Below, piece after piece: positions 23,691 through 40,064 of a stretch of DNA of 64,000 bases. Under the pieces are notes generated by a model that was given only the letters and a program-made list of their open reading frames with translations, did no database searches and had not been told where the DNA came from. Source of the stretch: Xanthomonas sacchari. GTDB lineage: Bacteria > Pseudomonadota > Gammaproteobacteria > Xanthomonadales > Xanthomonadaceae. The position numbers and the translations under genes were made by a program. Location: assembly GCF_024266585.1 (NCBI RefSeq), contig NZ_CP100647.1:4259001-4323000 (forward strand), written 5' to 3'. Position 1 is the stretch's first letter. The number at the start of each line of letters is the position of its first letter.

Positions 23691-25072
23691 CCACCGCCTT
23701 GCCCACCGCGCTTACCGACACACTGTCCGCCCTGCTCGGCGCCGAGGGCTGGCGCACCGACCCCGACAGCCGGCGCAGCTACGGCGAGGACGATTCGCGG
23801 CGCTGGGCGCTGGCCGACGCGGTGGCGCTGCCGCAGACCCGCGAGCAGGTGCAGGCGATCGTGCGCGCCTGCCGCGCGCACCGCGTGCCGCTGGTGGCGC
23901 GCGGCGCCGGCACCGGCACCGCCGGCGCCGCGGTGCCGTTCGCCGGCGGCGTGGTGCTGTCGTTCGCGCGCATGAACCGCATCGTGCAGTTGCGTCCGGC
24001 CGACCGCTGCGCGGTGGTCGAGCCCGGCGTGCTCAACGGCGACCTGCAACAGGCCTTGGCGCCGCACGGGCTGTTCTGGCCGCCGGATCCGTCCAGCGCG
24101 GAGATCTGCAGCGTCGGCGGCAACCTCTCCACCAATGCCGGCGGGCCGCGCGCGGTGAAGTACGGCGCCACCCGCGACAACGTGCTCGGCCTGGTCGCGG
24201 TGACCGGCAGCGGCGAGCTGATCCGCTGCGGCGGCGCCTACACCAAGGACGCCACCGGCTACGACCTGACCCACCTGCTGGTCGGCAGCGAAGGCACCCT
24301 GGCGCTGATCGTGGAAGCGACGCTGAAACTGTCGCCGCGGCCGCTGGCGCAGGCCGGGCTGCGCGCGCTGTACCGCGACGCCGCCAGTGCCGCGGCGGCG
24401 GTGTCGCGGCTGATGGCGCAGCCGAGCACGCCGACCATGCTGGAGTTCATGGACCGCAGCGCGATCGCGCTGCTGCGCCGCAACGGCAGCGACGTGCCCG
24501 AGGCCGGCGCGATGCTGCTGATCGAAGCCGACGGCGACCACGACACCCTGCCCTACGCGCTGCAGGCGCTGGGCGCGGCGGCCGAGGGCGAGGGCCTGCT
24601 GGCGCTGGACGTGGCCGCCGACGGCAGCGCGCGCGACCGCCTGTGGGCGGCGCGCCGCGCGCTGTCGCCGGCGCTGCGCACGATCCGCCCGGGCAAGATC
24701 AACGAAGACGTGGTGGTGCCGGTATCGCGCATCCCCGAGCTGGTCGCCGGCGTGGAAGCGCTGGCCGCCGAGTTCGCCCTGCCGATCGTCGCCTTCGGCC
24801 ATGCCGGCAACGGCAACCTGCACGTCAACATCATGTACGCGCCGGACGACGCCGCCGAGACCGCGCGCGCGCATGCGGCGTTGCCGCGGCTGTTCGCGCT
24901 GGTGCTGGCGCTGGAAGGCACGCTGTCGGGCGAACACGGCATCGGCGTGGCCAAGCGCGATTACATGGACCAGGCCTTCGACGCCGCCACCCTGGACGCG
25001 ATGCGCGCGATCAAGCGGGCGCTGGATCCGGATGGGATCCTCAATCCGGGGAAGGTGTTGCCGGAGCCTTGA
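23687..25072 (+). CDS. FAD-binding oxidoreductase, GlcD / D-lactate dehydrogenase type
   Basis: 461 aa. An N-terminal PCMH-type FAD domain (VPLVARGAGTGTAGAAVPFAGG, then PDPSSAEICSVGGNLSTNAGG) and a C-terminal FAD-oxidase domain with the metal/substrate segment GHAGNGNLHVN and the GEHGIGVAKRDYM end motif. It probably oxidises a 2-hydroxy acid (D-lactate, glycolate or D-2-hydroxyglutarate) with a quinone or flavoprotein acceptor. No GlcE/GlcF partner genes are adjacent, so a stand-alone D-lactate or D-2-hydroxyglutarate dehydrogenase is more likely. The ATG at 23687 overlaps the preceding stop by 4 bp. Confidence 0.92.
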   Translation: MTTALPTALTDTLSALLGAEGWRTDPDSRRSYGEDDSRRWALADAVALPQTREQVQAIVRACRAHRVPLVARGAGTGTAGAAVPFAGGVVLSFARMNRIVQLRPADRCAVVEPGVLNGDLQQALAPHGLFWPPDPSSAEICSVGGNLSTNAGGPRAVKYGATRDNVLGLVAVTGSGELIRCGGAYTKDATGYDLTHLLVGSEGTLALIVEATLKLSPRPLAQAGLRALYRDAASAAAAVSRLMAQPSTPTMLEFMDRSAIALLRRNGSDVPEAGAMLLIEADGDHDTLPYALQALGAAAEGEGLLALDVAADGSARDRLWAARRALSPALRTIRPGKINEDVVVPVSRIPELVAGVEALAAEFALPIVAFGHAGNGNLHVNIMYAPDDAAETARAHAALPRLFALVLALEGTLSGEHGIGVAKRDYMDQAFDAATLDAMRAIKRALDPDGILNPGKVLPEP

Positions 25073-25138
25073 GGGGGAATCGGGAATCGGGAATCGGGAA
25101 TCGGGAATCGGGAATCGGGAATCGGGAATCGGGAATCG
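25073..25138. repeat. Tandem GGGAATC heptads after the FAD oxidase
   Basis: About nine nearly perfect head-to-tail copies of GGGAATC directly follow the stop at 25072. There is no inverted arm here, so it is the cleanest single-arm example of the dispersed heptad element and a candidate length-variable tract. The rest of the 25139-25542 gap contains the REP pair and otherwise no gene I can support. Confidence 0.9.
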
Positions 25139-25194
25139 CAACAGCGTCTTTCGCGAGCGGATGCGGTGCAACGTCGCCATGCCGCCCTGCCGTC

Positions 25195-25262
25195 GTAGGA
25201 ACGGCTTCAGCCGCGACCGCAGCGTGTCCGATCACGCCCGTCGCGGCTGAAGCCGCTCCTAC
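25195..25262. repeat. Inverted pair of GTAG-type REP sequences
   Basis: GTAGGAACGGCTTCAGCCGC (start of a 23-nt unit, 25195-25217) faces its inverse at 25240-25262, ending CCGCTCCTAC. Each half is itself a hairpin (GCGGCTTCAGCCGC-like). This matches the GTAG-headed REP elements known from Stenotrophomonas and Xanthomonas, arranged as a BIME. Confidence 0.85.
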
Positions 25263-25542
25263 ATGCCTTGTGGAGACCGCCTGCACCACCCGGGCCATCG
25301 CCAGCGTCTCTGTCGCGGGACGATCCACCGCGATGGCGATTTCTCCAATCGGTCATCGCAAGGGCCGGGCTGCGCGCTGCGAACGCCGAAGCAAGCACTG
25401 GGCGCCCTGGCTGGCCGGGTGAACACGGCACGGCGCAAGTGCCGACCTCGGCCTCAGCCCTTGCCCGCGTCTCCAGCAGCGGCTCGCGCGGCGCGGCGAC
25501 GATGTCCGCCCTGCGGGGCGTTCCTGCCACGGAGGCAACGCT

Positions 25543-26043
25543 TCATGGCGCCCATTCGGCAGGGGTGACGACGCGGACGTGATCAACGCCTTCGGCGAGC
25601 GTCGGCGCTTCGAAGAGATCGGCCACCGATCGGATCGACTCCTCGGGAACGTGCTCATCCTCTGCCCGCTGCAGGTTGCGCGCGATCGCGACATCCAACG
25701 CCACCTTGAGCCAGACGATCTCGATCCGGGCGCCGGCCGCTTTCGCAATGGCGACGATCGGCGCCCGATGCCGGGCTCCGGGCAGCGCCGCGTCGAAGTA
25801 GACGGTGCATGGGCTGATCGGTTGCCGCGCAATCCATGTCGTCTTGCCCGCGCCCTGCAGGCCGCAGACGATCACGACCGTCCAGGTTGCGGCGGATTCG
25901 CGCGCACCGGCGAGGATGGCCTTGAGGGCATCGTAGCTTTGCCGCCACGCGGCTCGGTTGCGTTCCGGCGTCCAGACGCGACCATGTTCCGTTTGCAGGA
26001 AGCGGTCCGGGTTGATCACGATAGGCAGTGAGGACAAGGGCAT
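25543..26043 (-). CDS. Small AAA/P-loop ATPase or kinase-like protein
   Basis: 166 aa. The Walker A motif GLQGAGKTTW is near residues 60-69, followed by a DAALPGARHR loop and an ARNLQRAEDE segment with lid-type arginines, as in small zeta-toxin/AAA_33 type nucleotide or small-molecule kinases. It lacks a recognisable partner: flanked by REP elements on both sides, it is a single-gene island between the FAD oxidase and kdpE. GC content is somewhat lower than the neighbours. Substrate unknown. Confidence 0.8.
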   Translation of the reverse strand: MPLSSLPIVINPDRFLQTEHGRVWTPERNRAAWRQSYDALKAILAGARESAATWTVVIVCGLQGAGKTTWIARQPISPCTVYFDAALPGARHRAPIVAIAKAAGARIEIVWLKVALDVAIARNLQRAEDEHVPEESIRSVADLFEAPTLAEGVDHVRVVTPAEWAP

Positions 26044-26130
26044 CTGTTCTTCCGGCTATCTCGGCCCGCCGCCCTCGAACACACGCATTGCCGGTGCAGG
26101 CGCGGCTTGGTCGCCACGGCGGCGTTCCCG

Positions 26131-26153
26131 GTCGCGGCTGAAGCCGCTCCTAC
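26131..26153. repeat. Single GTAG-type REP
   Basis: A 23-nt unit ending GAAGCCGCTCCTAC, the same family and orientation as 25240-25262. It sits between the ATPase start and the kdpE stop. Confidence 0.85.
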
Positions 26154-26181
26154 GGGCAGCCGGGGAGGCAGCCACGGCGCA

Positions 26182-26910
26182 TCACGCGGACGGACACGGC
26201 ACGCCGATGAAGCGCAGCCCCACGCCCGGCTCGGTGGCGATGTAGCGCGGGGCCACGGCGCTGTCGCCGAGCTTCTGCCGCAGCTTGCCGACCAGGATGC
26301 GCAGGTAGTGGGTGTCGTCCTGGTGGGTGGGGCCCCACAGTTCGCGCAGCAGTTGCGGCTGCGTCACCACGCGGCCGCTGTGCCGCAGCAGCAGCGCGAG
26401 CAGCGCGTACTCCTTGCGGCTGAGCGGCAGCGCCTCGCCGTCCAGGCGCACCTCGCGCAGGCCCAGGTGGATATGCAGGTGGCCGTCGTCGAACACCGGC
26501 TCGGCCTCGCCGGCCACCGGCTGCATGCGCAGCAGCACGCGGATGCGTGCCATCAGTTCCTGCACGCCGAACGGCTTGGTCACGTAGTCGTTGGCGCCGG
26601 CATCCAGCGCCTGCACCTTCTCCGCCTCGCCAGCGCGCACGGTCAGCATGATCACCGGCACCGACGACCATTGCCGCAGTTCGCGCAGCACGCTGTGCCC
26701 GTCCTGGTCGGGCAGGCCGATATCCAGCACCACCAGTTCGGCGCCGTGCGCGGCCAGTTGCGCCAGGCCGGCGGCGCCGGTGTCCGCCTGCAGCACGCGG
26801 TAGCCCTGCGCGCGCAGGCTGATGTCGAGGAAGCGGCGGATCTGCGGCTCGTCGTCGATGACCAGCACGCGCGGCGGCGGAATCGGATCGGCGTGGGACT
26901 CAGTCGGCAT
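26182..26910 (-). CDS. kdpE: Potassium-response regulator KdpE
   Basis: OmpR-type response regulator that activates kdpFABC on phosphorylation by KdpD. 242 aa. The receiver domain has the acidic pair in VLVIDDEPQIRRFLD and phosphoacceptor D63 (VVLDIGLPD), with the conserved Lys in DYVTKPFG. A C-terminal winged helix (about 140-235) includes THYLRILVGKLRQKLG. The start at 26910 overlaps the kdpD end by 11 bp. Probable target sites are at 34386-34401 and 36442-36457. Confidence 0.97.
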   Translation of the reverse strand: MPTESHADPIPPPRVLVIDDEPQIRRFLDISLRAQGYRVLQADTGAAGLAQLAAHGAELVVLDIGLPDQDGHSVLRELRQWSSVPVIMLTVRAGEAEKVQALDAGANDYVTKPFGVQELMARIRVLLRMQPVAGEAEPVFDDGHLHIHLGLREVRLDGEALPLSRKEYALLALLLRHSGRVVTQPQLLRELWGPTHQDDTHYLRILVGKLRQKLGDSAVAPRYIATEPGVGLRFIGVPCPSA

Positions 26911-29578
26911 CGGGGCGGGACGGCGGCGCGGCGGGTTCGATGAGCGGCAGGGTAATGCGGATCGTGGTGCCGCGGCCATCGGGACCGGGCAGCGCCTCGA
27001 CGCTGCCGCCGTGCGCGCCGATCATGCCCTGGCAGATGGTCAGGCCCAGGCCGGTGCCGTGGCGGCCGCGGTCGCCGCGCTCGACGCTGTAGAACATGTC
27101 GAAGATGCGCGCGCGCTCGTCCTCGGGAATGCCCGGGCCGCGGTCGCTGATGTCGATGCGCAGGCGGCCCTCGACCATGCCGGCGGCGACGCGGATCGCC
27201 GCGTCCGCCGGCGAGAACTTGGCCGCGTTCTCCAGCACGTTGAAGATCGCCTGCTCGACCAGCGCCGGGTGCACCCACAGCGTCGGCAGCTCGGCGGCCA
27301 GGGCGATGTCCAGGCGCACCTGCGGCTGGTAGCGCTGCAGGCGCCGCGCGGCCGAGCCGATCAGTTCGTCCACGCCGATCCAGTCGCGGTTCAAGGTCAG
27401 CCCGGTGTGGCCGAGCCGGGTCATGTCCAGCAGGTTCTGGATATAGCGGTCCAGGCGCTCGCCTTCCATCTGGATGGTGTCGAGCAGGCTGCGGCGGTCC
27501 TCCGCGTCCATCGCCTTGCCGTAGCTGGACAGGCTGCTGGCCGCGCCGATCATCGCCGCCAGCGGCGAGCGCAGGTCGTGCGAGACCGAGGACAGCAGCG
27601 CCGAGCGCAGCCGCTCGGTCTCGCCGCTGACCCGCGCGCTCTCCAAATCGGCGACCAGGCGCGTGCGCAGCGCGGCCTGGCCGATGTCCTCGACCATCGC
27701 CTCGGCCAGGCGCTGCTGCTCCAGGCCCGGGCGCTGCACGCCGGCGCCGAAGCGCAGGCCGACCACGCCGATCGCGCCGCGCTCGTGGCGCACCGGCAGG
27801 AACCACCAGCTCGCCCCGGCCAGGGTGTCGGTGAAGCGGCCGGTGGCCTGGCCGTGACGCTGCGCCCAGTCGGCGGCGCTGCGGTCCACCGCGGCCATCG
27901 ACGGCGCGTAGTCGTCGGCGCCGGCGTGCGCGCGCTCCAGCGGCTGCAGGCGCAGCCAGGCCTCGGCCTCGAGCGTGCCGGCGAGCGCGCGGCGCCCGGC
28001 CTCCAGCACCTGGCCCAGGTCGGCGGCGCTGGCCAGCTCGCGGCCCAACCGCTGCAGCGCGGTGGTCTGCGCGTTGGCCGCACGCAGCGCCAGCACCTGC
28101 ATGCGCAGGCGCGAGGCCAGGCGCCCGGCGACCAGCGCCGCGACCAGGAACAGCAGCACCGTGACCAGGCCCTGGCGCGCGCCGATGTGCAGGGTGTAGC
28201 GCGGATCGATGAAGAAGAAATCGTAGGCAAGGAAGCTCAGGATGGCGGCCAGCACCGCCGCGGCCATCCGCGTCTTCGCCGCGACCATCACCACCGCGAC
28301 GATGAACACCATCGACAGGTCGTCGATGCCGACCCAGCGCTCGGCCAGCCAGCCCACCGCGACCGCCGCCAGCGTGGCGACCGTGGCGAACACCAGGTCG
28401 TCGCGCGACAGCCAATGCCCCGGGCTGCGCCAGCGCCGCCGCGCACGGGCGCGCGCTTCCGGCGAACTGATGATCACCAGCTCGTAGTGGGCGCCGCGTT
28501 GCAGCAGCTGTTGGGTCAGCGTGCGGTTGATCATCCGCGCCAGCGGGCGCTCGCGGGTGCGGCCCAGCACCAGGGTGGATACGCCGCTGCGCGCGGCGTG
28601 GTCGAGCAGGGTGTCGGCGACGTTGGCGCCGTGCAGCAGCGCGGCCTCGCCGCCGAGCCGCCGCGCCAGCGCGAAGGCGCGGTCGATCTCCAGCTGCCAG
28701 TCGGCATCGGGCTGCGCCTGGGTCTGCACGGTGACCACCGTCCACGGCGCGCCGCGGCGTTCGGCCAGGCGCCGCGCCACCCGCACCAGGTAGTCGGACT
28801 GGCCGCGCCCGTCGATCGCCACCATCACCGTGCGCCGCAGCGCGACGCTGGTGCGGCCCTGCGCGGCCTGCACGTCGCGCAGGTCGTTGTCGACGCGGTC
28901 GGCGGCGGTCTGCATCGCCAACTCGCGCAGCGCGGCCAGATTGGACGGCGAGAAGAACGCCTGCAGCGCCTGCCCGGCCTGCTCGGGCAGGTAGACCTTG
29001 CCCTGTTGCAGGCGCTCGATCAGTTCGCGCGGCGGCAGGTCGACCAGCACGATGTCGCGCAGGCGGTCGAAGATCGCATCGGGGACGGTCTCGCTGACGC
29101 GCACGCCGGTGATGCGATGGACCACGTCGTTGAGGCTTTCCAGGTGCTGGATGTTGACCGTGCTGTAGACGTCGATGCCGGCGTCGAGCAGTTCCTGCAC
29201 GTCCTGCCAGCGCCGCTCGTGGCGGCTGCCGGGCGCGTTGCGATGCGCCAGTTCGTCCACCAGCACCAGCGGCGGGCGCAGCGCCAGCAGCGCATCCAGG
29301 TCCATCTCGTCGAGGGTGCGGCCGCGATACTCCAGCCGCCGCCGCGGCTGCACGGTGAGGCCTTCCAGCAGCGCCGCGGTCTCGGCGCGGCCGTGGGTCT
29401 CGACCACGCCGACCACCAGCCGATGGCCCTGCTGCTGCAACTGCCGCGCGCGCGACAGCATCGCGTAGGTCTTGCCGACTCCCGGCGCCGCGCCGAGGAA
29501 CACGGTCAGGCGCCCGCCGCGCGCGCGCTGGAGTTCGCCGATCAGCGCATCGGCCTGCTGGGTGCGGGGGTCGGGCAT
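26900..29578 (-). CDS. kdpD: Potassium-sensing histidine kinase KdpD
   Basis: Inner-membrane sensor kinase for K+ limitation and osmotic stress. 892 aa, normal length. The N-terminal KdpD domain has Walker A GAAPGVGKT (29-37) and ELAHRNAPGSRH. A USP-like domain follows (about 250-370), then four closely spaced transmembrane segments (about 400-500), a GAF-like region, the HisKA box SSVSHDLRSPLAAM with phospho-His667, and the ATPase N/G boxes (NVLENAAKFS, DRGPGIPE, GTGLGLTICQG). The start at 29578 directly follows a heptad element that separates it from kdpC. Confidence 0.97.
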   Translation of the reverse strand: MPDPRTQQADALIGELQRARGGRLTVFLGAAPGVGKTYAMLSRARQLQQQGHRLVVGVVETHGRAETAALLEGLTVQPRRRLEYRGRTLDEMDLDALLALRPPLVLVDELAHRNAPGSRHERRWQDVQELLDAGIDVYSTVNIQHLESLNDVVHRITGVRVSETVPDAIFDRLRDIVLVDLPPRELIERLQQGKVYLPEQAGQALQAFFSPSNLAALRELAMQTAADRVDNDLRDVQAAQGRTSVALRRTVMVAIDGRGQSDYLVRVARRLAERRGAPWTVVTVQTQAQPDADWQLEIDRAFALARRLGGEAALLHGANVADTLLDHAARSGVSTLVLGRTRERPLARMINRTLTQQLLQRGAHYELVIISSPEARARARRRWRSPGHWLSRDDLVFATVATLAAVAVGWLAERWVGIDDLSMVFIVAVVMVAAKTRMAAAVLAAILSFLAYDFFFIDPRYTLHIGARQGLVTVLLFLVAALVAGRLASRLRMQVLALRAANAQTTALQRLGRELASAADLGQVLEAGRRALAGTLEAEAWLRLQPLERAHAGADDYAPSMAAVDRSAADWAQRHGQATGRFTDTLAGASWWFLPVRHERGAIGVVGLRFGAGVQRPGLEQQRLAEAMVEDIGQAALRTRLVADLESARVSGETERLRSALLSSVSHDLRSPLAAMIGAASSLSSYGKAMDAEDRRSLLDTIQMEGERLDRYIQNLLDMTRLGHTGLTLNRDWIGVDELIGSAARRLQRYQPQVRLDIALAAELPTLWVHPALVEQAIFNVLENAAKFSPADAAIRVAAGMVEGRLRIDISDRGPGIPEDERARIFDMFYSVERGDRGRHGTGLGLTICQGMIGAHGGSVEALPGPDGRGTTIRITLPLIEPAAPPSRPDAD

Positions 29579-29582
29579 TTGG

Positions 29583-29692
29583 AGCTGGGAATGGGGAATA
29601 GGGAATGGGGAATCGCAAAGCCTACAGCGCGGCGCGCCTTACCGCTTTTGCTCCCTCCCATTCCCGATTCCCGTTTCCCCATTCCCGGCCGC
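29583..29692. repeat. Inverted heptad-repeat element between kdpC and kdpD
   Basis: A forward arm of GGGAATG/GGGAATA heptads (29585-29615) and an inverted arm (29657-29690) flank a core of about 40 bp. The inverted arm lies inside kdpC and supplies its last residues. Confidence 0.8.
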
Positions 29693-30268
29693 GTCCAAGG
29701 CCAGATTCAGCGCCAGCACGTTCACCCGCGGCCTGCCGAGCACGCCGAACTGGCGCGGCTGGGTCTGCGCGGCGACCAGGGCGGCCACGGTCTGCGGCGG
29801 CAGGCCGCGCGCGGCGGCGACGCGCGCCACCTGAAGCTGCGCCGCGGCGACGCTGATGTCCGGATCCATGCCGCTGCCGGACTGGGTGATCAGGTCGTCC
29901 GGCACCTGCGCCGGGTCGACGCCCTCGCGCGCGGCCACCGCCTGGCGGGTGTCGTCCAGGCGCTTGCGCAGGTCGGGATTGCTGCGCGCCTGGTTGCTGC
30001 CGGCCGCCGCCATCGGGTCATACTTGGCGCCGGACGGACGCGGCTGGAAGTAGCCGGCAGCGGCGAACGGCTGCGCCACCAGCGCCGAGCCGACCACGCG
30101 GCCGTCGTGGGTGCGCAGGCTGCCGTTGGCCTGCTCGGGGAACAGCGCGCCGGCCAGCATGGTGGCCAGCAGCGAGTACAGCGCCGCGGACGCGAGCACC
30201 AGCAGCGGCAGCACCAGCACGGCGCGCCAGCGCATCGGTTCGCGGGGGGAAACGGAGGACACAGTCAT
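29639..30268 (-). CDS. kdpC: Potassium-transporting ATPase subunit KdpC
   Basis: Single-span accessory subunit of the KdpFABC P-type K+ pump. 209 aa. One N-terminal transmembrane segment (VLVLPLLVLASAALYSLLATML), then conserved GRVVGSALVAQPF, YFQPRPS and the DLITQSGSGMDPDIS motif. The final residues GNGETGIGNGREQKR are repeat-encoded and are not part of the conserved fold. Starts 39 bp after kdpB. Confidence 0.96.
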   Translation of the reverse strand: MTVSSVSPREPMRWRAVLVLPLLVLASAALYSLLATMLAGALFPEQANGSLRTHDGRVVGSALVAQPFAAAGYFQPRPSGAKYDPMAAAGSNQARSNPDLRKRLDDTRQAVAAREGVDPAQVPDDLITQSGSGMDPDISVAAAQLQVARVAAARGLPPQTVAALVAAQTQPRQFGVLGRPRVNVLALNLALDAAGNGETGIGNGREQKR

Positions 30269-30307
30269 GGAGGCAATTCCGAAAGAGCGTGAGAGTCGGC
30301 GCCGGGG

Positions 30308-32377
30308 TCAGCCCAGCGCCACCAGCAACAGATCGATGACCTTGATCCCGACGAACGGCAGCAGCACGCCGCCCACGCCGTAGATCAGCATGTTCCGGCG
30401 CAACAGCGAGGTCGCCGAGGACGGGGTGAAGCGCACGCCGCGCAGCGCCAGCGGGATCAGCGCCGGGATCACCAGCGCATTGAAGATCAGCGCCGCCAGC
30501 ACCGCGTTGGTCGGGTTGGACAGGTGCATCACGTTCAGCGCGGCCATCTGCGGGATCGAGGCGGCGAACAGCGCCGGCAGGATCGCGAAGTACTTGGACA
30601 CGTCGTTGGCCAGCGAGAAGGTGGTCAGCGCGCCGCGGGTGATCAGTTGCTGCTTGCCCACTTCGACCACCGCCAGCAGCTTGGCCGGATCCGAATCCAG
30701 ATCGACCATGTTGCCGGCCTCCTTGGCCGCCTGGGTGCCGGAGTTCATCGCCAGGCCGACGTCGGCCTGCGCCAGCGCAGGCGCGTCGTTGGTGCCGTCG
30801 CCGACCATCGCCACCAGGCGTCCGCCGGCCTGCTCCTGGCGGATGCGCGCCAGCTTGTCCTCGGGCGTGGCCTCGGCGATGTAGTCGTCGACGCCGGCCT
30901 CGGCGGCGATGGCCGCGGCGGTGAGCGGATTGTCGCCGGTGATCATCACCGTCTTGACGCCCATCGCGCGCAGCCGCGCGAACTTCTCGCGTACGCCGTG
31001 CTTGACCACGTCCGACAGCTCGACCACGCCCAGCACGTGCCGGCCCTCGGCCACCACCAGCGGCGTGGCGCCGCTGCGCGCGACCTGCTCGACCCGGCCC
31101 TTCAGTTCCGCCGGCACCTGCCCGCCCAGCGCGGTGACGTGGCGGATCAGCGCATCGGCGGCGCCCTTGCGGATCGACCGCGGCGGCTGCATGCCGACGG
31201 CCGGCAGGTCGACGCCGGACATGCGCGTCTGCGCGGTGAAGGCGACGAACTCGGCGCCCGCCGGATCGGCCGGCGGCAGCCCCTGCTCGCGCGCCAGGCG
31301 CACGATCGACTTGCCCTCCGGGGTCGGGTCGGCCAGCGACGACAGCATCGCCGCCTCGCGCAGCTGCGCCACGTCCACGCCGCTGAGCGCATGGAACACG
31401 GTGGCCTGGCGGTCGCCGTGCGTGATGGTGCCGGTCTTGTCCAGCAGCAGCACGTCGACGTCGCCGGCCACTTCCACCGCCTTGCCCGACTTGGCCAGCA
31501 CGTTGGCCGACAGCGCGCGGTTCATGCCGGCGATGCCGATCGCCGGCAGCAGCCCGCCGATGGTGGTCGGGATCAGGCACACCAGCAGCGCGATCAGCAG
31601 CAGTGGGTCCACGTGCACGCCGACGAAGCCGGCGATCGCCGGCAGCGTGGCGACCACGATCAGGAAGGTCAGGGTCATCGCCGCCAGCAGCATGGTCAGG
31701 GCGATCTCGTTCGGCGTCTTCTGCCGGTTGGCGCCTTCCACCAGCGCGATCATCCGGTCCAGGAAGCTGTGGCCCGGCTCGGCGGTGACCTTCACCAGGA
31801 TCTCGTCGGACAGCACCTTGGTGCCGCCGATGACGCCGGAGCGATCAGTGCCGGCCTCGCGCAGCACCGGCGCGGATTCGCCGGTGACCGCGGCCTCGTT
31901 GATCGTGGCCAGGCCGTGCACGATCTCGCCGTCGGCCGGGATCAGCTCGCCGGCCGACACCACCACCAGGTCGCCCGGGCGCAGTTCGGCGGCGGGCACG
32001 CTGGTCTCGCCATCCAGCCGCGCGCTGGCGACCCGGCGCGCCACCAGGTCCTTGCGCGCGCGCCGCAGCGAGGCGGCCTGGCCGCGGCCGCGGGCCTCGG
32101 CCACCGCTTCGGCGAAGTTGCCGAACAGCACGGTGACCAGCAGGATCGCGGTCACCGCCCAGCCGAAGCCGGCCGGGCCCTGGCCGGACACGGTGATCAG
32201 CGCCGACAGCAGCGTGCCGGCGAAGACCACGGCCATCACCGGGCTGCCGAGCAGGTGCCGCGGCGACAGCTTCAGCACGCTGTCGCGCAAGGCCGCGCGC
32301 AGCGCCGCGGCATCGAACAACCCAGGCCGGCGCGCCGGCGAAGAAGCCACGGAAGTAGAAGGAAGCGGGGTGCTCAT
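30308..32377 (-). CDS. kdpB: Potassium-transporting ATPase ATP-binding subunit KdpB
   Basis: Catalytic P-type ATPase subunit that hydrolyses ATP and couples it to K+ uptake through KdpA. 689 aa. Phosphatase-loop TGES is at 165-168, phosphorylated D313 is in DKTGTITH, and [18 protein letters not shown] marks the hinge. Seven or so membrane segments are visible. It starts 10 bp after the kdpA stop. Confidence 0.98.
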
Positions 32378-32387
32378 CGTCGTCGTC

Positions 32388-34073
32388 TCAGTGCGCGGCC
32401 AGGGTCAGGTGATCGGCGATCGGTCCCAACACCAAAGCCGGCGTGAATTGCAGAACGGTCAGGACCGCGATGACCGCGATCAGGGTCAATGCGAAGGTCG
32501 GGGTTTCCACCTGCAGGCTGCCGCCGGTTTCCGGCGCCACCCGCTTGCGCGCCAGTTGCGCGGCCACGATCAGCGGCACGATCAGCGCCGGATAGCGGCC
32601 CAGCAGCAGCACCACGGTGCAGCTCAGGTTCCACCACGGAATGCCGTCGCCCAGGCCCTCGAAGCCGGAGCCGTTGTTGGCGAACGCCGAGGTGTACTCG
32701 TAGAATACCTGGCTGATGCCGTGGAAGCCGGGATTGGAGGTCGCCGAGATCGCCGCCGGCAGCGCCAGGGTGACCGCGGTGAAGCCGAGCAGCACCAGCG
32801 GCTGCAGCAGGATCAGCAGCGCCAGCAGACGCACTTCCGGCGCCTCGATCTTGCGCCCGAACAACTCCGGGGTGCGCCCGGTCATCAGTCCGGCCAGAAA
32901 CACGCTCAGCAGCAGATACACCAGGAACTGCTGCAGGCCGCAACCGATGCCGCCCCAGATCGCATTGATCAGCATGTTGACCATGGCCACGCCGCCGGTC
33001 AGCGGCGCCAGCGAATCGTGCATGGCGTTGACCGAGCCGTTGGAGGTCTGCGTGGTCAGCGACGACCAGGCCGCCGACGCATCGACGCCGAAGCGCACCT
33101 CCTTGCCTTCCATCAGCGCGGCGCTGCCCGGCGCATGGCCTTCGGCCCACAACGACACCGCGGTGGACGCCAGCGACATCACCAGCATGCTGCCGAACAC
33201 CAGCGCGGTGAACTTGCGGCGCCCGGTGAACGGGCCGACCATGAACGCCACCGCCACCGGGATCAGCACGATGGCCAGCACCTCCAGCAGGTTGGAGAAC
33301 GGCGTGGGATTCTCCAGCGCCATCGCGCTGTTGGGGCCGTACCAGCCGCCGCCGTTGGTGCCGAGTTGCTTGATCGCCACCATCGCCGCGACCGGACCGA
33401 GCGGGATCTTCTGCGTCTGCTGCCCGGCGCTGGCGTCCAGCGGCGTGGCGACCGGACCGGCGGCCAGCGTCGAGGGCACACCCTGCTGGGTCAGCAGCAA
33501 CGTCCACAGCAGGCACAGCGGCAGCAGGAAACGCAGGGTCGGACGGATCACGTCGGCCCAGTAGTTGCCGAGATCCACATCCTGCGCCGCGTCGTGGCCG
33601 CGCCCGCCGAACAGGCCGCGCAGCGTCGCCGCGACCAGCGCCAGGCCCATCATCGGGGTGATGAACTGCAGGCCGACCACGCCCACCGCCTGCGACAGGT
33701 ACGACAGCTGCGCCTGACCCGAGTAGTGCTGCTGGTCGGTGTTGGTGAGGAACGAGACCATGGTGTGCAGGGCCACGTCCCAGCGCATGTTGGGCACCGC
33801 GTCGGGATTGAACGGCAGCCAGGCCTGGGTGACGAACAGCACGAACACCAGCACGCCCAGCACCAGGTTGCTGGCCAGGAACGCGCCGGCGTAGGCGCGC
33901 CAGTGCATGCCGCGCGCCGGGTCGGTGCCGAGCAGGCGGTACAGCGGGCGTTCGATCCAGCCGAACAACGCGTCGCCGCGCATCGGCGCCCCGCGCATCA
34001 CCTTGGCCAGGTACAGGCCCAGCGGCCATCCCAGCAGCAGCGCGAGCGCATAGACAAGCAATGTATCGATCAT
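32388..34073 (-). CDS. kdpA: Potassium-transporting ATPase potassium-binding subunit KdpA
   Basis: Channel-like subunit that selects and translocates K+. 561 aa with about ten hydrophobic segments. The selectivity-filter loops can be seen in order: [41 protein letters not shown] and [16 protein letters not shown]. It starts 16 bp after the kdpF stop. Confidence 0.98.
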
Positions 34074-34089
34074 GGAAGTGGCACTCGGC

Positions 34090-34182
34090 TCAGAAATCTT
34101 CGGGGCGCAGGATCACGTACAGCAGGTAACCGGCCGCGACGATCACCGCCACGCCGCAAACGAACGAAAGCCAACCGCTCAT
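34090..34182 (-). CDS. kdpF: KdpF, small membrane peptide of the Kdp pump
   Basis: 30 aa, a single transmembrane helix (LSFVCGVAVIVAAGYLLYVIL) ending RPEDF, the size and end typical of KdpF. It stabilises the KdpABC complex. First gene of the operon; the start at 34182 (MSGWLS) is chosen over an upstream Met, whose extra residues do not resemble the family. Confidence 0.92.
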   Translation of the reverse strand: MSGWLSFVCGVAVIVAAGYLLYVILRPEDF

Positions 34183-34334
34183 GGTCTCAACTCCGAAACA
34201 AAGGGACGGCCCGCCGCACGGCAGGCCGCAATCGCATGGGAACACCACCGCGCGCGACGCGCGCACGGTGGCAGAAGGGAAGCGCAACATGGCGACGCAC
34301 GCCGGGTCGGACAGGCCTTCTGGCCCAGGCCGGC

Positions 34335-34401
34335 ATTATCGAAGCCGGCGCCATAAACTCTCCGTGGCGAAGCCGCGCGGCGCGCATAAATTCTGCGTAA
34401 A
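34335..34401 (-). promoter_or_regulatory. kdp promoter with predicted KdpE site
   Basis: Minus-strand KdpE-like site TTTACGCAGAATTTAT (34386-34401): two TTTA half-sites whose starts are 11 bp apart, the same phasing as the E. coli KdpE site. A -10 box GATAAT (34335-34340) lies 45 bp downstream. No good -35 box exists at the expected place, as usual for an activator-dependent promoter. The rest of the 34183-34490 gap holds no gene. Confidence 0.7.
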
Positions 34402-34490
34402 ACCGCACGTTGCAGGCGCATCGCCATGGTCGGCGCCGGCAGCGCGCGTTGCCGCGCGACGCGGCCGGCACCGCGTGCGCCATCCTCAGT

Positions 34491-35999
34491 TCAGTAGTGC
34501 AGGATCGCGTCGATCAACGCCGTGGCCTGATGATTGCGGCGCCCGCCGTCGTAGGCCGGGAAATCGTAGGCGTGCTCGTAGCGCAGCTCCGGGCGGATCT
34601 CCAGGTCCTGCGATACCCAATGGGTGAGGCCGATGGTGTGGCTGGAGTAGCGCGTGGCGAAGCCGGTGCGTTGGCCGTCGTGGTCATTCACGAACTCGTT
34701 GCGGATCGCCAGCATGTCCGATGCGCCGAGCTGGATGTTGACGTAGTTGACGATGGCGTCGGCGCTGCTGCGTCCCAGCGGGAAGTCCGGCGCCTCGCCC
34801 AGCGCATAGCCCGGGCGCCCGGTCGGCGCGTGCGACTGCGACGGATCGGTGGCCAGCGCCTGGTCGCGCACGTAGAGGTGATAGGCCTCGGTGAGCATGT
34901 GCACCCTCGGCGAGAAGCGATGGCCCCAGGTCAGCACGAACTCCTGCAGGTTGTTGTAGGTCTGCGCGGCGTTGTTGTACGACTCCACGCACGGATACAG
35001 CATGTCGTCGTTGCTCTTGGAGACCCAGCGCAGGCAGGCCTGCGCGCTCAGGCGGCTGGTCGCGTCCCAGATCGCCGAATCGTCGCCGCCATGCACGCCG
35101 AGCTGCAGCGTCCACTGGTCGTTGAGCTTGGTGGTGGTGAGCACGCCCATGTTGGTATAGGCATCGACCGTGTACAGGATCGAATGGGTCAACAGGTAGT
35201 TGTTCGGCGAGAACTGCGCCTCGATGTCCGGCAGCGACAGATAGCGGCCGACCGTGACCAGCATGCCCTGCGCCACCGACGGCAGGTACACATCCACATG
35301 CGCGATCATCGGATCGTTGCCGTAGATCTTGCCGTTGAGCGCACTGTTGGGCTGTGGGTGGTGCAGCAACTGGTCGCTGGTGACGCCCTTCATCGTGGTG
35401 TAGTGGTAGTCGTAGCCGTACAGGTCGTCGAGGTGGAAGCCCCAGTCGACATGATCGGTCTGCACCGTGTCCGGCACGCGCTGCAGGCGGATCAGCGCCT
35501 GGTTGAACTCGCCGCGATTGGGCCGCGTGGAGTAGGACAACGGATAGTTGCTGCGCGAGGACGTGCTGGCGTTGAGCGAGGGATTGATCCAGCCGTACAG
35601 CTCGATGCGGTTGCGCTGCATCCACTGCCCCACGCGCGTGCAGGCCAGTGCCTTTTCCACCGGGTACTGCGCATTCTCGTTGGGCACGCCGACCGGGTAG
35701 TCCACCGCGCCCAGCTGCCATTCGGCCGACGGGAACGGCGGCGAGGAGAACGGCGCCGCCAGACCGCGGCGCGCCGGCGTCGGCGCCTCGGGATCGGCCG
35801 GTTGCGCATCCTCGCGGTAGGCGGAGGCCAGGCGCGAGAAGAAACCGTCGGAACAGTCGGCGCTGCGCGCCGGCGGCGGCGTGGCGGCCTGCGACGCCGG
35901 CATCGCCTCCGACATGGGCGCAGCCAGGCCCGCGGCGGCGGCGTGGCCGGCGCACAGCAGGGCCAGGGGCAGGAACAGGGGATGGAGCTTCATGGACAT
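34491..35999 (-). CDS. BBP2/OmpL-like outer-membrane beta-barrel porin
   Basis: 502 aa. A signal peptide (MSMKLHPLFLPLALLCAGHAAAA) is followed by a Pro/Ala-rich linker and a predicted barrel of alternating aromatic/polar strands (RIELYGWINPSLNAS, WGFHLDDLYGYDYHYTTM, RPELRYEHAYDFPAYDGG). The protein ends ALIDAILHY, an outer-membrane C-terminal signature with a terminal aromatic residue. It resembles the putative beta-barrel porin-2 family. It lies directly upstream of kdpF on the same strand and its promoter carries a KdpE-like site, suggesting a role in K+ entry across the outer membrane (inference). ATGs at 35999 and 35993 are both possible starts. Confidence 0.85.
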   Translation of the reverse strand: MSMKLHPLFLPLALLCAGHAAAAGLAAPMSEAMPASQAATPPPARSADCSDGFFSRLASAYREDAQPADPEAPTPARRGLAAPFSSPPFPSAEWQLGAVDYPVGVPNENAQYPVEKALACTRVGQWMQRNRIELYGWINPSLNASTSSRSNYPLSYSTRPNRGEFNQALIRLQRVPDTVQTDHVDWGFHLDDLYGYDYHYTTMKGVTSDQLLHHPQPNSALNGKIYGNDPMIAHVDVYLPSVAQGMLVTVGRYLSLPDIEAQFSPNNYLLTHSILYTVDAYTNMGVLTTTKLNDQWTLQLGVHGGDDSAIWDATSRLSAQACLRWVSKSNDDMLYPCVESYNNAAQTYNNLQEFVLTWGHRFSPRVHMLTEAYHLYVRDQALATDPSQSHAPTGRPGYALGEAPDFPLGRSSADAIVNYVNIQLGASDMLAIRNEFVNDHDGQRTGFATRYSSHTIGLTHWVSQDLEIRPELRYEHAYDFPAYDGGRRNHQATALIDAILHY

Positions 36000-36392
36000 C
36001 GCGACTTCGGCTCGCAACGAGCCGTCCTTCTGTGGGTGGAGGGAGGCAACGACAGCGCGCCGCCTCACGCGCACACGCCATCGCAGGCGACGCACTTGGT
36101 GGCGCGTCGCAGGGAGAGAGGTGGAATGCAGCGCCGCGGCGGCGGCGTCAGCGGGTCAATGCGCGTGCAGTGAACGCGCGCGGCAGCGTGGCGGCGGATG
36201 CTGCAATGCGCTGCGGCAGCCATGGCGGCGGCGCGACGCGGGTGGGCTCGCGGCGATCCAGATGCGGACACCAGGCCAGCCATCCGCCAGCGGATGCCGC
36301 GGATGGCGCCTGCAGTCGACCGTTGCGGGCGGCGCCATGCTCAAGATTGCAGCCATCGAGTCCACGCACCCATCCCCGTCGTCAGCGCGGAA

Positions 36393-36457
36393 AGTATAGG
36401 AATCGCCGGATATCTTCGTTGCAAAGCGCGCGCTGGTTCGAATAAAACCTGCGTAAA
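36393..36457 (-). promoter_or_regulatory. Porin promoter with predicted KdpE site
   Basis: Minus-strand TTTACGCAGGTTTTAT (36442-36457) differs from the kdp site at only two positions and keeps the 11-bp half-site phasing. A -10 box TATACT (36393-36398) lies 43 bp downstream, versus 45 bp in the kdp promoter. A start near 36386 would give a leader of about 390 nt before the porin gene. I see no gene in 36000-36392. Confidence 0.65.
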
Positions 36458-36507
36458 TTCCCGTGTAGAACGGGCGTGGCGCGTTGCGTTTGGGCCATGG
36501 GGTGCGC

Positions 36508-37138
36508 CGTACCCTCATCTGCCCCTGCGGGGCACCTTCTCCCGAGGGGAGAAAGGAGAAGCCAAAGCCCCTCTCCCGCCGGGAGAGGGGTTGGGGTGAG
36601 GGTCCGGCGCGCGCAGCGCCACGTGGATCTGTCCACGCGCCGCTGCGCCCGTACCCTCATCCGCTCCTTCGGGGCACCTTCTCCCGGTGGGAGAAGGGAG
36701 AAGTCAAAGCCCCTCTCCCGCCGGGAGAGGGGTTTGGGTGAGGGTCCGGCACGCGCAGCGCCACGTGGATCTGTCCACGCGCCGCTGCGCCCGTACCCTC
36801 ATCCGCCCCTGCGGGGCACCTTCTCCCGAGGGGAGAAGGGAAAAGCCAAAGCCCCTCTCCCACCGGGAGAGGGGTTGAGGTGAGGGTCCGGCGCGCGAAG
36901 CGCCACGTGGATCTGTCCACACGCCACTTCACCCGTACCCTCATCCGCCCCTGCGGGGCACCTTCTCCCGAGGGGAGAAGGGAGAAGCCAAAGTCCCTCT
37001 CCCGCCGGGAGAGGGGTTGGGGTGAGGGTCGGCGCGCGCAGCGCCACGTCGATCTGTCCACACGCCGCTTCACCCGTACCCTCATCCGCTCCTGCGGGGC
37101 ACCTTCCCCCTTCGGGGCCATGGTCCCGAAGGGAGAAG
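36508..37138. repeat. Tandem array of a 142-bp unit (about 4.4 copies)
   Basis: The junction sequence CGTACCCTCATC recurs at 36508, 36650, 36792, 36934 and 37075, so the unit is 142 bp (the last interval is 141). Each unit holds several hairpins: GGGGCACCTTCTCCC with its complement, CCCCTCTCCC/GGGAGAGGGG, GGCGC...GCGCC, and GTGGATCTGTCCAC. The array fills the space between the porin promoter and the hydrolase gene. Open frames across it are artefacts of the repeat. Confidence 0.92.
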
Positions 37139-37147
37139 CGAACTGCC

Positions 37148-38731
37148 TCAGTGCAGCGGCACGCTCAGGAACGACGGCGTCGCCGCCGGCGAGCTGAAAC
37201 TCACGGTGCCGCCGAAGCGGCTGGCCGAGGTGTAGCGCGGATCGGTGGTGTCCACCACCAGCACCAGGCGGCGGCCGGCCGGGATCTCGGCCGCGGTCGC
37301 CTGCAGCGCCAGGTCGAGGGTGACCGGCGTGCCCGGGGTCGCGTTGCGCAGGGTGTACGGCACATGGCTCAGCAATTGCGCCGAACCCGCCCCGTCCATG
37401 CTGTAGAGATAAGCGAACAGCGACACGTTCGGCTGGCTCGGGGTCACCGTCAACCGCAGCGACGGCGCACCGACCAGGCGCTTGGCGCTGGGCAGCACCG
37501 GGCCGCTCCACACCGCGGCGCCCACCCGGCTGACCAGCGGAATCGAGGTGGTCACCGGCTGGCCGAAGCCCTGCAACAGGCCACTGACCAGCACCACGCC
37601 GGAATCGGCCAGCGTCGGCACGCCGGTGGCGATGCGGTAGGTCCAGCCGCTGCTGTTGCCGCTGGTCAGCGCCCCGGTCGGCAGCAGCACGCCGCTGGGA
37701 CCGCTCAGGCCGTAGCGGGTGGCGCCGGCCTGCACGCTGTTCCAGTCGGCGTAGCTGAGCCAGTCGCCGCCGACGGTGGACAGTTGCACCGGCGCGTCGC
37801 GGTCCACGCCGTTGTCGCGGCCCTTCAGGTAATGGTCGAACCAGCGCGTGGCGACCGTGTAGACCTGGTTCGGCAGGCCCAGCGCGCCCGGCAACTCGGC
37901 GGTGGCATGGTCGCCCTGGCTGAACATCAGGTGCTTGGGCACGCTCAGCCGGTTGTACAGGTCGATGTACTGGTTCGGCGGGAACAGGCCGTCGTTGAAC
38001 GCATTGGCCATCAGCACCGCCGGGCCGTTGCGGTTGAGCGCCTGCAGCTCGTTGATCACCCCGCGCTCGGCGGCCTTGGGCAGGAAGCCCTGCACCGCGC
38101 CGTCGTAGTCGCCCACCGCCACGTGCGCGGTGATCCGCGCCAAGTCCGGACCGGGCCGGCCGGTGAGCGTGCCGGCGCCGACCAGCAGGGCGACGCCCTG
38201 CTGGCTGACCGTGCTGTTGGCGTACAGCGAAGCCTGCAGGTCGGCCCAGCCGCTGAGCGCGGCCACCGCCTTGATCCGCGGGTCGCGGGCGGCGGCGAGC
38301 AGGCTGGTGCCGGCGCCGTAGGAGATGCCGGACACGCCGATCGCCTTGGCGTCGGCCGGGGTATTGGCCAGCGCCCAGTCGATCACCGCGCTGACGTCCT
38401 CCACCGTCGGCGCCCCGGCGATGTCGATCAGCCCCTGGGAATCCCAGAAGCCGCGCGAGGTGTAGCTGACCACCACGTAGCCGTCGTTGGCCAGCTCGCT
38501 GGCGCGGCCCACGTACTCCAGGTTGGGCAGCGACCAACTGGCCGGCATCACCACCAGCGGGAACGGCCCCGGTCCCTGCCCCTGCGGTACCAGGACCAGC
38601 GCACCGAGCGTGGTGCCGTCGAAACTGGAAATGCGCTGGTACTGCTTGCTGAAGCCGGCCGCGGACGCGGCGGCGGAGAACACCAGCAGCATCGCGCACA
38701 GGGCGATGCGACGTGACACGGACATACGCAT
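37148..38731 (-). CDS. Secreted CocE/NonD (X-Pro dipeptidyl-peptidase S15 type) hydrolase
   Basis: 527 aa. A signal peptide (MSVSRRIALCAMLLVFSAAASAAG) is followed by an alpha/beta-hydrolase domain with oxyanion-side SYTSRGFWDSQG and nucleophile elbow GISYGAG (Ser in GxSYG). Catalytic Asp and His candidates lie in NAFNDGLFPP and SQGDHAT. A C-terminal jelly-roll (PepX_C-like) domain covers about residues 360-527. Substrate (ester, amide or dipeptide) cannot be told. ATGs at 38731 and 38725 are alternatives. It stands alone downstream of thiL on the same strand, with 226 bp between them. Confidence 0.85.
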   Translation of the reverse strand: MRMSVSRRIALCAMLLVFSAAASAAGFSKQYQRISSFDGTTLGALVLVPQGQGPGPFPLVVMPASWSLPNLEYVGRASELANDGYVVVSYTSRGFWDSQGLIDIAGAPTVEDVSAVIDWALANTPADAKAIGVSGISYGAGTSLLAAARDPRIKAVAALSGWADLQASLYANSTVSQQGVALLVGAGTLTGRPGPDLARITAHVAVGDYDGAVQGFLPKAAERGVINELQALNRNGPAVLMANAFNDGLFPPNQYIDLYNRLSVPKHLMFSQGDHATAELPGALGLPNQVYTVATRWFDHYLKGRDNGVDRDAPVQLSTVGGDWLSYADWNSVQAGATRYGLSGPSGVLLPTGALTSGNSSGWTYRIATGVPTLADSGVVLVSGLLQGFGQPVTTSIPLVSRVGAAVWSGPVLPSAKRLVGAPSLRLTVTPSQPNVSLFAYLYSMDGAGSAQLLSHVPYTLRNATPGTPVTLDLALQATAAEIPAGRRLVLVVDTTDPRYTSASRFGGTVSFSSPAATPSFLSVPLH

Positions 38732-38957
38732 GGACTGCCTCCCAAGCGGCGCCGGACCGGAATGGCCGGCTGCCGGAACGGTTACGCCAGAACGGTGACG
38801 AACGCTCGACACGGAGCCGGGCAGGCGGACCGTACCACCAGGTACGGACGTTTTCACGCCGCAGTGCGGCACGGTATGGAAAGGGAGGCTGCCGCTGCGG
38901 CATCCGCCCCACGGGCAGCGCCATTGACAGGGCCGCTGCGCGCAGGCGCAGGCCGGA

Positions 38958-39932
38958 TCAGCTCAGAAAGTGCTCGTAGCCGCGCCGCGGCGGCTGCCAG
39001 GGCCGGCCACCGGCATCGCGCACCACGATGCCGCGGCCGGCGACGATGCGCCCGATCGGCGTCGCCGTCACGCCGACCGCCTGCAGCGCCTGCACGATCG
39101 CCGCGCGCTGCGCCGGGTCGGCGGTGAAGCACAGTTCGTAGTCGTCGCCGCCGCCCAGTTGCCAGGCGTGCACCTGCGCCGCATCCGCATCGCTCGGCGC
39201 GGCGACCGCCGGCAGCGCGGCCAGGTCCAATTCGGCGCCGACGCCGCTGCGCGCGCAGATGTGCTCCAGGTCGGCCAGCAGGCCGTCGGAGACGTCCACG
39301 CAGGCCCGCGCCAGGCCGCGCAGGCGCAGGCCGGCCTGCACGCGCGGCGTCGGCCGCAGCAGGCGCTGGCGCAGGTGTTCGTGCACCGGATCGGCGGCCG
39401 GCGCGGCCACGCCCAACCGCCCGGCCTGCCACAGCGCCAACGCCGCGGCAGCCTCGCCCGGCTGCCCGGTCACCCAGACCTCGTCGCCCGCCTGCGCGGC
39501 ATCGCGGCGCAGCGCCGCCGTCGCCGGCACGCTGCCGATCGCGGTGACCGACAAGGCCAGCGGCCCGCGCGTGGTGTCGCCGCCGGCCAGGCCGATGGCG
39601 TGCGCGTCGGCAAGCGCGAAGAACCCCTCAGCGAACGCATCGACCCAGGCCATGTCGACCTGCGGCAGCGACAGCGACAAGGTGCACCAGCGCGGCTGCG
39701 CGCCCATCGCCGCCAGGTCGGACAGATTCACCGCCAGGGTCTTCCAGCCGATGTCGGCGGCCGCGGTCTCGGCCGGGAAATGCACCCCGGCATTGAGCGT
39801 ATCGGTGGTGATCGCCAGCAACTCCCCCGCCGGCGGCAGCAGCAGCGCCGCATCGTCGCCGATGCCCAGCGGCAGGTCCGCACGCGCCCGACTGCGTGCG
39901 CGCAGGCGCTCGATCAGATCGAATTCAGGCAT
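38958..39932 (-). CDS. thiL: Thiamine-monophosphate kinase ThiL
   Basis: Phosphorylates thiamine monophosphate to thiamine pyrophosphate using ATP. 324 aa. PurM-like fold: GIGDDAALL near the N-terminus, TDTLNAGVHF, GGDTTRG, DVSDGLLADLEH and GGGDDYELCF are all seen. The start at 39932 (MPEFDLIERL) is chosen because upstream in-frame residues come from a heptad repeat. It is the last gene of the rib-nusB-thiL block. Confidence 0.96.
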   Translation of the reverse strand: MPEFDLIERLRARSRARADLPLGIGDDAALLLPPAGELLAITTDTLNAGVHFPAETAAADIGWKTLAVNLSDLAAMGAQPRWCTLSLSLPQVDMAWVDAFAEGFFALADAHAIGLAGGDTTRGPLALSVTAIGSVPATAALRRDAAQAGDEVWVTGQPGEAAAALALWQAGRLGVAAPAADPVHEHLRQRLLRPTPRVQAGLRLRGLARACVDVSDGLLADLEHICARSGVGAELDLAALPAVAAPSDADAAQVHAWQLGGGDDYELCFTADPAQRAAIVQALQAVGVTATPIGRIVAGRGIVVRDAGGRPWQPPRRGYEHFLS

Positions 39933-39937
39933 TGGGG

Positions 39938-40064
39938 GCTGGGAATCGGGAATGGGGAGTCGGGAATGGTGAGAAGCAGGAGCGAAAGCCGGAACGTCGG
40001 CGATCTCGAAGGAGAACGGCATCTGCTTTTGCCATTCCCCATTCCCGTTTCCCCATTCCCGGCC
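39938..40064. repeat. Inverted heptad-repeat element between nusB and thiL
   Basis: A forward arm of GGGAATC/G heptads (39938-39970) and an inverted arm (40032-40064) lie on either side of a core of about 60 bp. It fills the whole nusB-thiL gap, ending 2 bp before the nusB stop. Confidence 0.8.

What the first reader, a model, noticed from the sequence alone, without database searches (positions are those of the whole stretch)
34335..36457. kdp operon and an adjacent outer-membrane porin share a KdpE-like operator with the same geometry: a candidate two-membrane potassium regulon
Minus-strand TTTACGCAGAATTTAT (34386-34401) before kdpF and TTTACGCAGGTTTTAT (36442-36457) before the porin match at 14 of 16 positions. 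In both, the two TTTA half-sites start 11 bp apart, the phasing of the known E. coli KdpE site (TTTATA-N5-TTTACA). Each is followed by a good -10 box (GATAAT, TATACT) at 45 and 43 bp and no usable -35 box, as expected for an activator-dependent promoter. The porin (34491-35999) is a BBP2-type barrel placed directly upstream of kdpF. I infer that low K+ induces a dedicated outer-membrane entry porin together with the inner-membrane pump.
Basis: partly seen in the sequence, partly recalled or inferred. Interest (0 to 1): 0.8.

Follow-up and report, generated by a model that had tools for sequence, protein, structure and literature searches.

The report
Outer-membrane porin wired to potassium pump
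A Xanthomonas-type bacterium carries, next to its emergency potassium pump, a gene for an outer-membrane pore with the same kind of genetic switch, and related bacteria place this pore gene, or an unrelated one, inside the pump operon itself, which suggests that low-potassium uptake is organised across both membranes.

Summary
Both 16-bp sites are at the stated coordinates (14/16 identical), and TTTACGCAGNNTTTAT occurs nowhere else in the 4.89-Mb genome. A weight matrix trained on 66 kdp operators outside the genus ranks the kdp site first (30.8 bits) and the porin site second (16.5) in 64 kb; the next is 5.2 and the best of 15 shuffles 11.0. Of 20 genus genomes searched, site and BBP2 porin share the same 11; the other 9 instead have a TorF-type porin ORF just before kdpF. 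Of 70 related BBP2 loci, 51 have the porin between kdpB and kdpC, 2 before kdpC at a contig edge, 3 after kdpB in order A-C-B. The Xanthomonas porins group among Rhodanobacteraceae ones although the pumps differ (KdpA about 40% identical): apparently a transferred porin under the resident KdpE. Two Luteibacter loci with a detached BBP2 carry a kdp-like operator too, with a degraded second half-site. KdpE control is well supported by sequence; K+ passage is untested. No described kdp-linked porin appeared in the open-access listings I saw.

The parts
36442..36457 (-). KdpE-type operator of the porin promoter, two TTTA half-sites 11 bp apart (TTTACGCAGGTTTTAT)
36417..36425 (-). TTTGCAACG, 32 bp after the start of the first half-site; possible further contact (inference)
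   Evidence: TTTGCA in all 12 aligned porin promoters
36393..36398 (-). -10 box TATACT of the porin promoter; no usable -35
34491..35999 (-). BBP2-type outer-membrane porin, 502 aa; N-terminus like a signal peptide and last residue Tyr (by eye)
   Evidence: PF07642, 92.6 bits; alignment of 11 orthologues
34386..34401 (-). KdpE-type operator of the kdp promoter (TTTACGCAGAATTTAT)
34351..34357 (-). third half-site TTTATGG, 33 bp after the second
34335..34340 (-). -10 box GATAAT of the kdp promoter
34090..34182 (-). kdpF, 30 aa (start at the ATG of MSGWLSFV)
32388..34073 (-). kdpA
   Evidence: PF03814
30308..32377 (-). kdpB (named from its translation and place)
   Evidence: finds kdpB-like genes
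29639..30268 (-). kdpC (named from its translation and place)
   Evidence: finds kdpC-like genes
26900..29578 (-). kdpD, sensor kinase
   Evidence: PF02702
26182..26979 (-). kdpE, response regulator; the true start may be internal
   Evidence: the three DNA-contact residues named in PMC3264566 are conserved

Best explanation
The BBP2 porin is an outer-membrane member of the KdpDE regulon. When K+ is scarce, KdpD phosphorylates KdpE, which binds the paired TTTA half-sites upstream of kdpF and upstream of the porin and activates both promoters, each of which has a -10 box but no usable -35. The porin then adds outer-membrane permeability for K+ so that diffusion into the periplasm does not limit the KdpFABC pump. 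In this Xanthomonas clade the porin was probably acquired laterally from a kdpB-porin-kdpC type operon and wired to the resident KdpE through its own operator, in place of the TorF-type porin that stands before kdpF in the other genus members searched. Shown by sequence: operator, its conservation, gene association, complementary distribution of the two porin types, grouping of the Xanthomonas porins with Rhodanobacteraceae ones. Inferred: KdpE binding, induction by low K+, K+ permeation, the route and direction of transfer.
For: Site and porin share the same 11 of 20 genus genomes. TTTA half-sites are kept at the porin in 11 of 11, including one genome where the middle changed (TTTATGAAAAATTTAC), and the promoter from the operator to past the -10 box is better conserved than the DNA upstream of it. 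Out-of-genus matrix ranks the porin site second in 64 kb. 66 of 66 out-of-genus kdp loci match TTTAYG-N5-TTTAYG within 1 mismatch near the first gene, against 0 of 1320 random pieces (the consensus was read from these loci, so this shows recurrence, not an independent test). BBP2 in kdp clusters: 51 of 70 between kdpB and kdpC, 2 at contig edges with kdpC following, 3 after kdpB in A-C-B order. Close TorF orthologue (84-100%) in the 9 BBP2-less genus members, not in the 11 others, which have only 29-40% matches. In 86 family kdp loci 49 have an outer-membrane-protein ORF just upstream of kdpF or kdpA; 47 match Gcw_chp/TorF. Xanthomonas BBP2 sits in a 10-row set with 7 Rhodanobacteraceae rows (98/96) while their KdpA is about 40% identical. 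Luteibacter L223 and L231: BBP2 without kdp in the fetched stretch but with a kdp-like operator, 15.6 and 13.3 bits. The E. coli kdp promoter has the same 11-bp spacing; KdpE DNA-contact residues R193, R200, T215 are conserved (residues from PMC3264566, abstract and passages).
Against: No binding, expression or permeation data. The porin site is a weaker match than the kdp site (16.5 against 30.8 bits; 13.5 to 25.7 across the genus) and lacks the third half-site at the usual place. The Luteibacter sites have a poor second half-site (GATACG). Porins near kdp are not universal: 20 kdpF-first family loci have none between kdpA and kdpD (G108 ends after kdpC; 5 more kdpF-first loci were not examined downstream), and of every sixth of the first 120 listed kdpA matches in the phylum sample only 1 of 20 had TorF or BBP2. 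BBP2 loci without kdp and without operator: L190, L194, L208, L211, L237, L238, L239 (best 4.8 bits). Net charge does not discriminate: the TorF beside sulfate-transporter-like genes is acidic too. KdpE is named by best hit and place, below the NCBIfam equivalog cut-off (228.9 against 325 bits). The tree is rooted at the midpoint only, so the direction of transfer is not fixed by it.
Confidence: 0.68

Rival explanations
1. The porin is a true KdpE target but not a K+ pore: it is a general or ammonium/small-solute porin, or an envelope adjustment made under low K+ or osmotic stress, when KdpDE is active.
For: A distant BBP2 gene lies just after a gene that reads as a PII protein (by eye) in L237, and a BBP2-domain gene of Kuenenia is highly upregulated under ammonium limitation (PMC7438415, passages). 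A TorF paralogue of this genome lies by genes that read as a sulfate ABC transporter (by eye).
Against: Varied placements in kdp clusters (BBP2 between B and C or after B; TorF before kdpA/kdpF, between B and C, or after C) point to a K+-linked role.
Confidence: 0.22
2. The porin site is bound by another OmpR-family regulator with a TTTA-type direct repeat, not by KdpE.
For: Other recurrent TTTAYG-N5-TTTAY sites exist away from kdp in the genus, one upstream of an ORF that reads as priA (7.4 bits).
Against: The matrix made from kdp operators scores the porin sites at 13.5 to 25.7 bits; presence of site and porin coincides in 11 of 20 genomes; the porin family is a kdp-operon gene elsewhere.
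Confidence: 0.06
3. The matching sites are a relic of local duplication or linkage without function.
For: The two sites are 2 kb apart and 14 of 16 identical.
Against: They vary between species yet keep the TTTA half-sites; the surrounding DNA of the two promoters differs; a second, weaker case occurs in Luteibacter.
Confidence: 0.04

Closest known systems
E. coli KdpE operator of kdpFABC (TTTATA-N5-TTTACA; PMC3264566, abstract and passages)
   Same: Two TTTA half-sites, 11 bp from start to start; DNA-contact residues conserved
   Different: In E. coli the kdpFABC operon is called KdpE's sole target (PMC7657598, passages; the same paper also reports 31 ChIP-exo peaks); here a porin has its own copy of the operator
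BBP2 porins, PF07642
   Same: Window porin passes the gathering score
   Different: A kdp-linked subgroup; no solved relative found by sequence
TorF family putative porin, TIGR02001 / PF09694 Gcw_chp
   Same: Stands before kdpF in most of the 49 family loci with an upstream outer-membrane ORF, and within kdp clusters elsewhere
   Different: A different Pfam family from BBP2; occupies the complementary genomes of this genus
Nutrient-regulated porins partnered with an inner-membrane transporter, such as PhoE/OprP with Pho or LamB with Mal (recalled, from no call)
   Same: Outer-membrane pore co-regulated with the high-affinity transporter
   Different: I recall none for K+; K+ is usually taken to enter through general porins (recalled)

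Membership tests
KdpE-regulated promoter | two TTTA-type direct repeats 11 bp apart | tested here: met
KdpE-regulated promoter | site conserved between species at the same promoter | tested here: met
   porin 11 of 11 genus genomes plus X. maliensis; kdp 10 of 11 with both TTTA half-sites, G019 with one change
KdpE-regulated promoter | third half-site 32-33 bp downstream, as in many kdp promoters of the family | tested here: not met
   kdp promoter has it; porin promoter reads ATATCCGG there
KdpE-regulated promoter | KdpE binds and activates at low K+ | not testable with these tools
   needs EMSA and reporter
BBP2 porin PF07642 | score above the gathering cut-off | tested here: met
   92.6 against 26.2 bits
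BBP2 porin PF07642 | beta-barrel fold | not testable with these tools
Kdp-associated porin | gene inside or next to the kdp operon across genera | tested here: met
   60 of 70 BBP2 loci have kdp genes in the fetched stretch
Substrate-dedicated porin | selectivity for K+ | not testable with these tools
   net charge uninformative

The most novel reading that the evidence does not exclude
Kdp is in several Gram-negative lineages a two-membrane K+ uptake system: an outer-membrane pore is an exchangeable module of the operon or regulon, filled by members of separate families (BBP2, TorF/Gcw_chp, a PF13557-type protein), and kept under KdpE even when the gene leaves the operon.
Probability: 0.5. 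Interest if true: 0.8.

Novelty: new variant of a known kind. Interest (0 to 1): 0.63.

Why it matters
How K+ at micromolar levels crosses the outer membrane is rarely asked, because general porins are assumed to suffice (recalled view). Replacement of one porin family by another at the same regulatory position, and apparent capture of a foreign kdp-operon porin by the resident KdpE, suggest that outer-membrane K+ entry can limit growth and is selected. It gives BBP2 and TorF, for which I found no solved relative, a concrete function to test, and would extend the KdpE regulon beyond the pump.

Tried and rejected
Chance match: rejected. Operator confined to this clade: rejected, it recurs in the 66 out-of-genus kdp loci examined. 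Acidic charge as a sign of cation selectivity: inconclusive, a TorF beside sulfate-transporter-like genes is also acidic. A terminator-like hairpin before kdpF looked covarying by eye; RNAalifold gave a covariation term of 0.03 and a different pairing, so it is left as a remark. Rfam: no match at gathering score in 25000-40000. BBP2-kdp association in an even phylum sample: by eye on the listed coordinates the only co-located pair was the window's own, so this link is mainly a Xanthomonadales feature; the TorF-kdp link is wider (16 of 20 loci, 14 of which were picked because TorF lay near) but sparse (1 of 20). The first random control overlapped the operator itself and was repeated with exclusion. 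Of the 77 kdpA genomes, G048 (kdpA split over two contigs) and G127 (fragment) were dropped. In 4 of the 49 loci with an upstream outer-membrane ORF my script called no kdpF (G132, G186, G190, G205). Literature: ten searches in an open-access library; two found nothing and four listings were capped (32: 20 of 22; 59: 15 of 42; 76: 15 of 21; 77: 15 of 40); no listed title or abstract start described a kdp-linked porin. Subscription papers are not held.

Full report
WHAT IS THERE. On the minus strand, in order: KdpE-type site (36442-36457), -10 box, a BBP2 porin ORF (34491-35999), a second KdpE-type site (34386-34401), -10 box, then kdpF, kdpA, kdpB, kdpC, kdpD, kdpE down to 26182. The two sites are 14/16 identical with half-sites 11 bp apart; gaps to the -10 boxes are 45 and 43 bp; no -35/-10 pair is found.

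CHANCE. TTTACGCAGNNTTTAT occurs 2 times in 4,889,028 bp, both here; TTTAYG-N5-TTTAY occurs 3 times, reversed control 0. The third lies upstream of an ORF that reads as priA (by eye) and scores only 7.4 bits.

THE OPERATOR IS FAMILY-WIDE. I assembled 86 kdp loci (20 of the genus, 66 of other genera in the family). In the 66 outside the genus a TTTAYG-N5-TTTAYG match lies near the first gene with 0 mismatches in 51 and 1 in 15, against 0 of 1320 random pieces with at most 1; the consensus was read from these loci, so this shows recurrence. Exact TTTAYG pairs at 11 bp occur in 61 of 86, at 32/33 bp in 72, both in 54, neither in 7. E. coli K-12 shows TTTATA-N5-TTTACA and, counted by hand on that sequence, TTTGCAG 32 bp after the second half-site. 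A 28-bp matrix from the 66 outside operators puts the window's kdp site first (30.8 bits) and porin site second (16.5); next 5.2; best of 15 shuffled windows 11.0. The porin promoter departs from the kdp pattern: it has no third TTTAYG at +44 but a conserved TTTGCA at +32.

CONSERVATION AT THE PORIN. BBP2 orthologues occur in 11 of 20 genus genomes, exactly the 11 with the exact motif at one or both promoters. Porin TTTA half-sites are intact in 11 of 11; kdp half-sites in 10 of 11 (G019 reads TTTACGCAGAATGTAT). Porin sites score 13.5 to 25.7 bits in the genus and 21.3 in X. maliensis. In the alignment of 12 porin promoters, conservation rises at the operator, runs past the -10 box and falls again.

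TWO PORINS, ONE PLACE. The 9 genus members without BBP2 have a 242-256 aa TorF-type ORF ending 17-18 nt before kdpF, a close orthologue (84-100%) absent from the 11 BBP2 genomes, which have only 29-40% matches elsewhere. In the 86 family loci: 49 have such an outer-membrane ORF just upstream (45 with kdpF called, gap 10-58 nt; 4 without a called kdpF; 47 match PF09694 and 2 PF13557), 11 have BBP2 with its own promoter, 1 (G085) has BBP2 between kdpB and kdpC, and 25 start with kdpF, of which 20 were checked downstream and show no such ORF between kdpA and kdpD (one ends after kdpC).

BBP2 IS A KDP GENE ELSEWHERE. Of 70 loci encoding BBP2 relatives, 51 have it between kdpB and kdpC, 2 at contig edges have kdpC following, 3 have it after kdpB in the order A-C-B, 4 Xanthomonas loci have it upstream of kdpA, and 10 show no kdp in the fetched stretch, some of them short contigs or contig ends. 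50 of the 52 loci with BBP2 after kdpB and enough sequence upstream of kdpA score at least 15 bits there; L233 has 10.1 and L243 -9.3 (one of the 50, L196, is the same contig as training locus G085). In the tree, Xanthomonas BBP2 sits in a 10-row set with 7 Rhodanobacteraceae rows (98/96; midpoint root) although KdpA is about 40% and KdpB about 59% identical: the porin appears to have moved between two Kdp lineages. In Luteibacter L223 and L231 a BBP2 without kdp in the fetched stretch carries a kdp-like operator (15.6 and 13.3 bits; second half-site GATACG); the other detached copies with long flanks do not (L208, L211; also L238, L237, L239, L190, L194; best 4.8 bits).

BEYOND THE FAMILY. 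In a phylum sample of 398 genomes kdpA is found in 136, TorF in 215, BBP2 in 63, 38 of them over the cut-off (the TorF match list was cut). Twenty loci, 14 picked because a listed TorF lay near kdpA and 6 others, show TorF within or at the head of the kdp cluster in 16. Every sixth of the first 120 listed kdpA matches shows TorF or BBP2 in 1 of 20 (one locus, G338, ends at kdpC). So the link is recurrent but not general.

MECHANISM. Most likely KdpE-P activates both promoters at low K+ and the porin supplies the periplasm with K+. KdpE keeps the DNA-contact residues R193, R200 and T215 (residues from PMC3264566, abstract and passages). Shown by sequence: operator, linkage, complementarity, grouping. 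Inferred: binding, induction, permeation, transfer route. A BBP2-domain gene upregulated under ammonium limitation in Kuenenia (PMC7438415, passages) and a BBP2 gene next to a gene that reads as PII in L237 fit a broader role in small-cation entry and are the main rival.

NOVELTY. Ten searches of the open-access library (listed, with their caps, in Tried and rejected) gave no listed title or abstract start on a kdp-linked porin; PMC7657598 (passages) names kdpFABC as KdpE's sole E. coli target while reporting further ChIP-exo peaks. I also saw passages of PMC12542777 and PMC9062700, which do not describe such a porin. I rate it a new variant of a known kind.

Noticed in passing
G000:C1:973477-973492 (outside the window; L173): A TTTACGACYKGTTTAT site occurs in 16 of 20 genus genomes, here upstream of an ORF that reads as priA; a second recurrent site TTTACG(T/A)TTTGTTTAC occurs in 15 of 20 but not in this genome. 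Role unknown.
   Followed up: partly
L274 (G000:C1:3995000-4005000): A TorF paralogue lies next to genes that read as a sulfate ABC transporter in the window's own genome.
   Followed up: partly
L237:4589-6417: A distant BBP2 gene (42% identity) lies directly after a gene that reads as PII, hinting at a BBP2 role in ammonium entry.
   Followed up: partly
genome G473, C33:49275-51037: A BBP2 match and a TorF match lie side by side on the same strand, away from any listed kdpA.
   Followed up: no
L192:8164-10395: A TorF-like stretch (29% identity) and BBP2 both lie between kdpB and kdpC in Dyella tabacisoli.
   Followed up: no
L201, L202, L205: kdp order A-C-B with BBP2 after kdpB in three Rhodanobacter loci.
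   Followed up: no
window 34206-34229 (-): Terminator-like hairpin in the kdpF leader; covariation not supported by RNAalifold.
   Followed up: partly
genome G019: The reversed control pattern hits 58 times in G019 against 0 to 4 in the other 19 genomes, so that genome probably holds a repeat family.
   Followed up: no
window 36530-36800: Repeated CTCTCCCGCCGGGAGAGGGG-type units upstream of the porin promoter.
   Followed up: no
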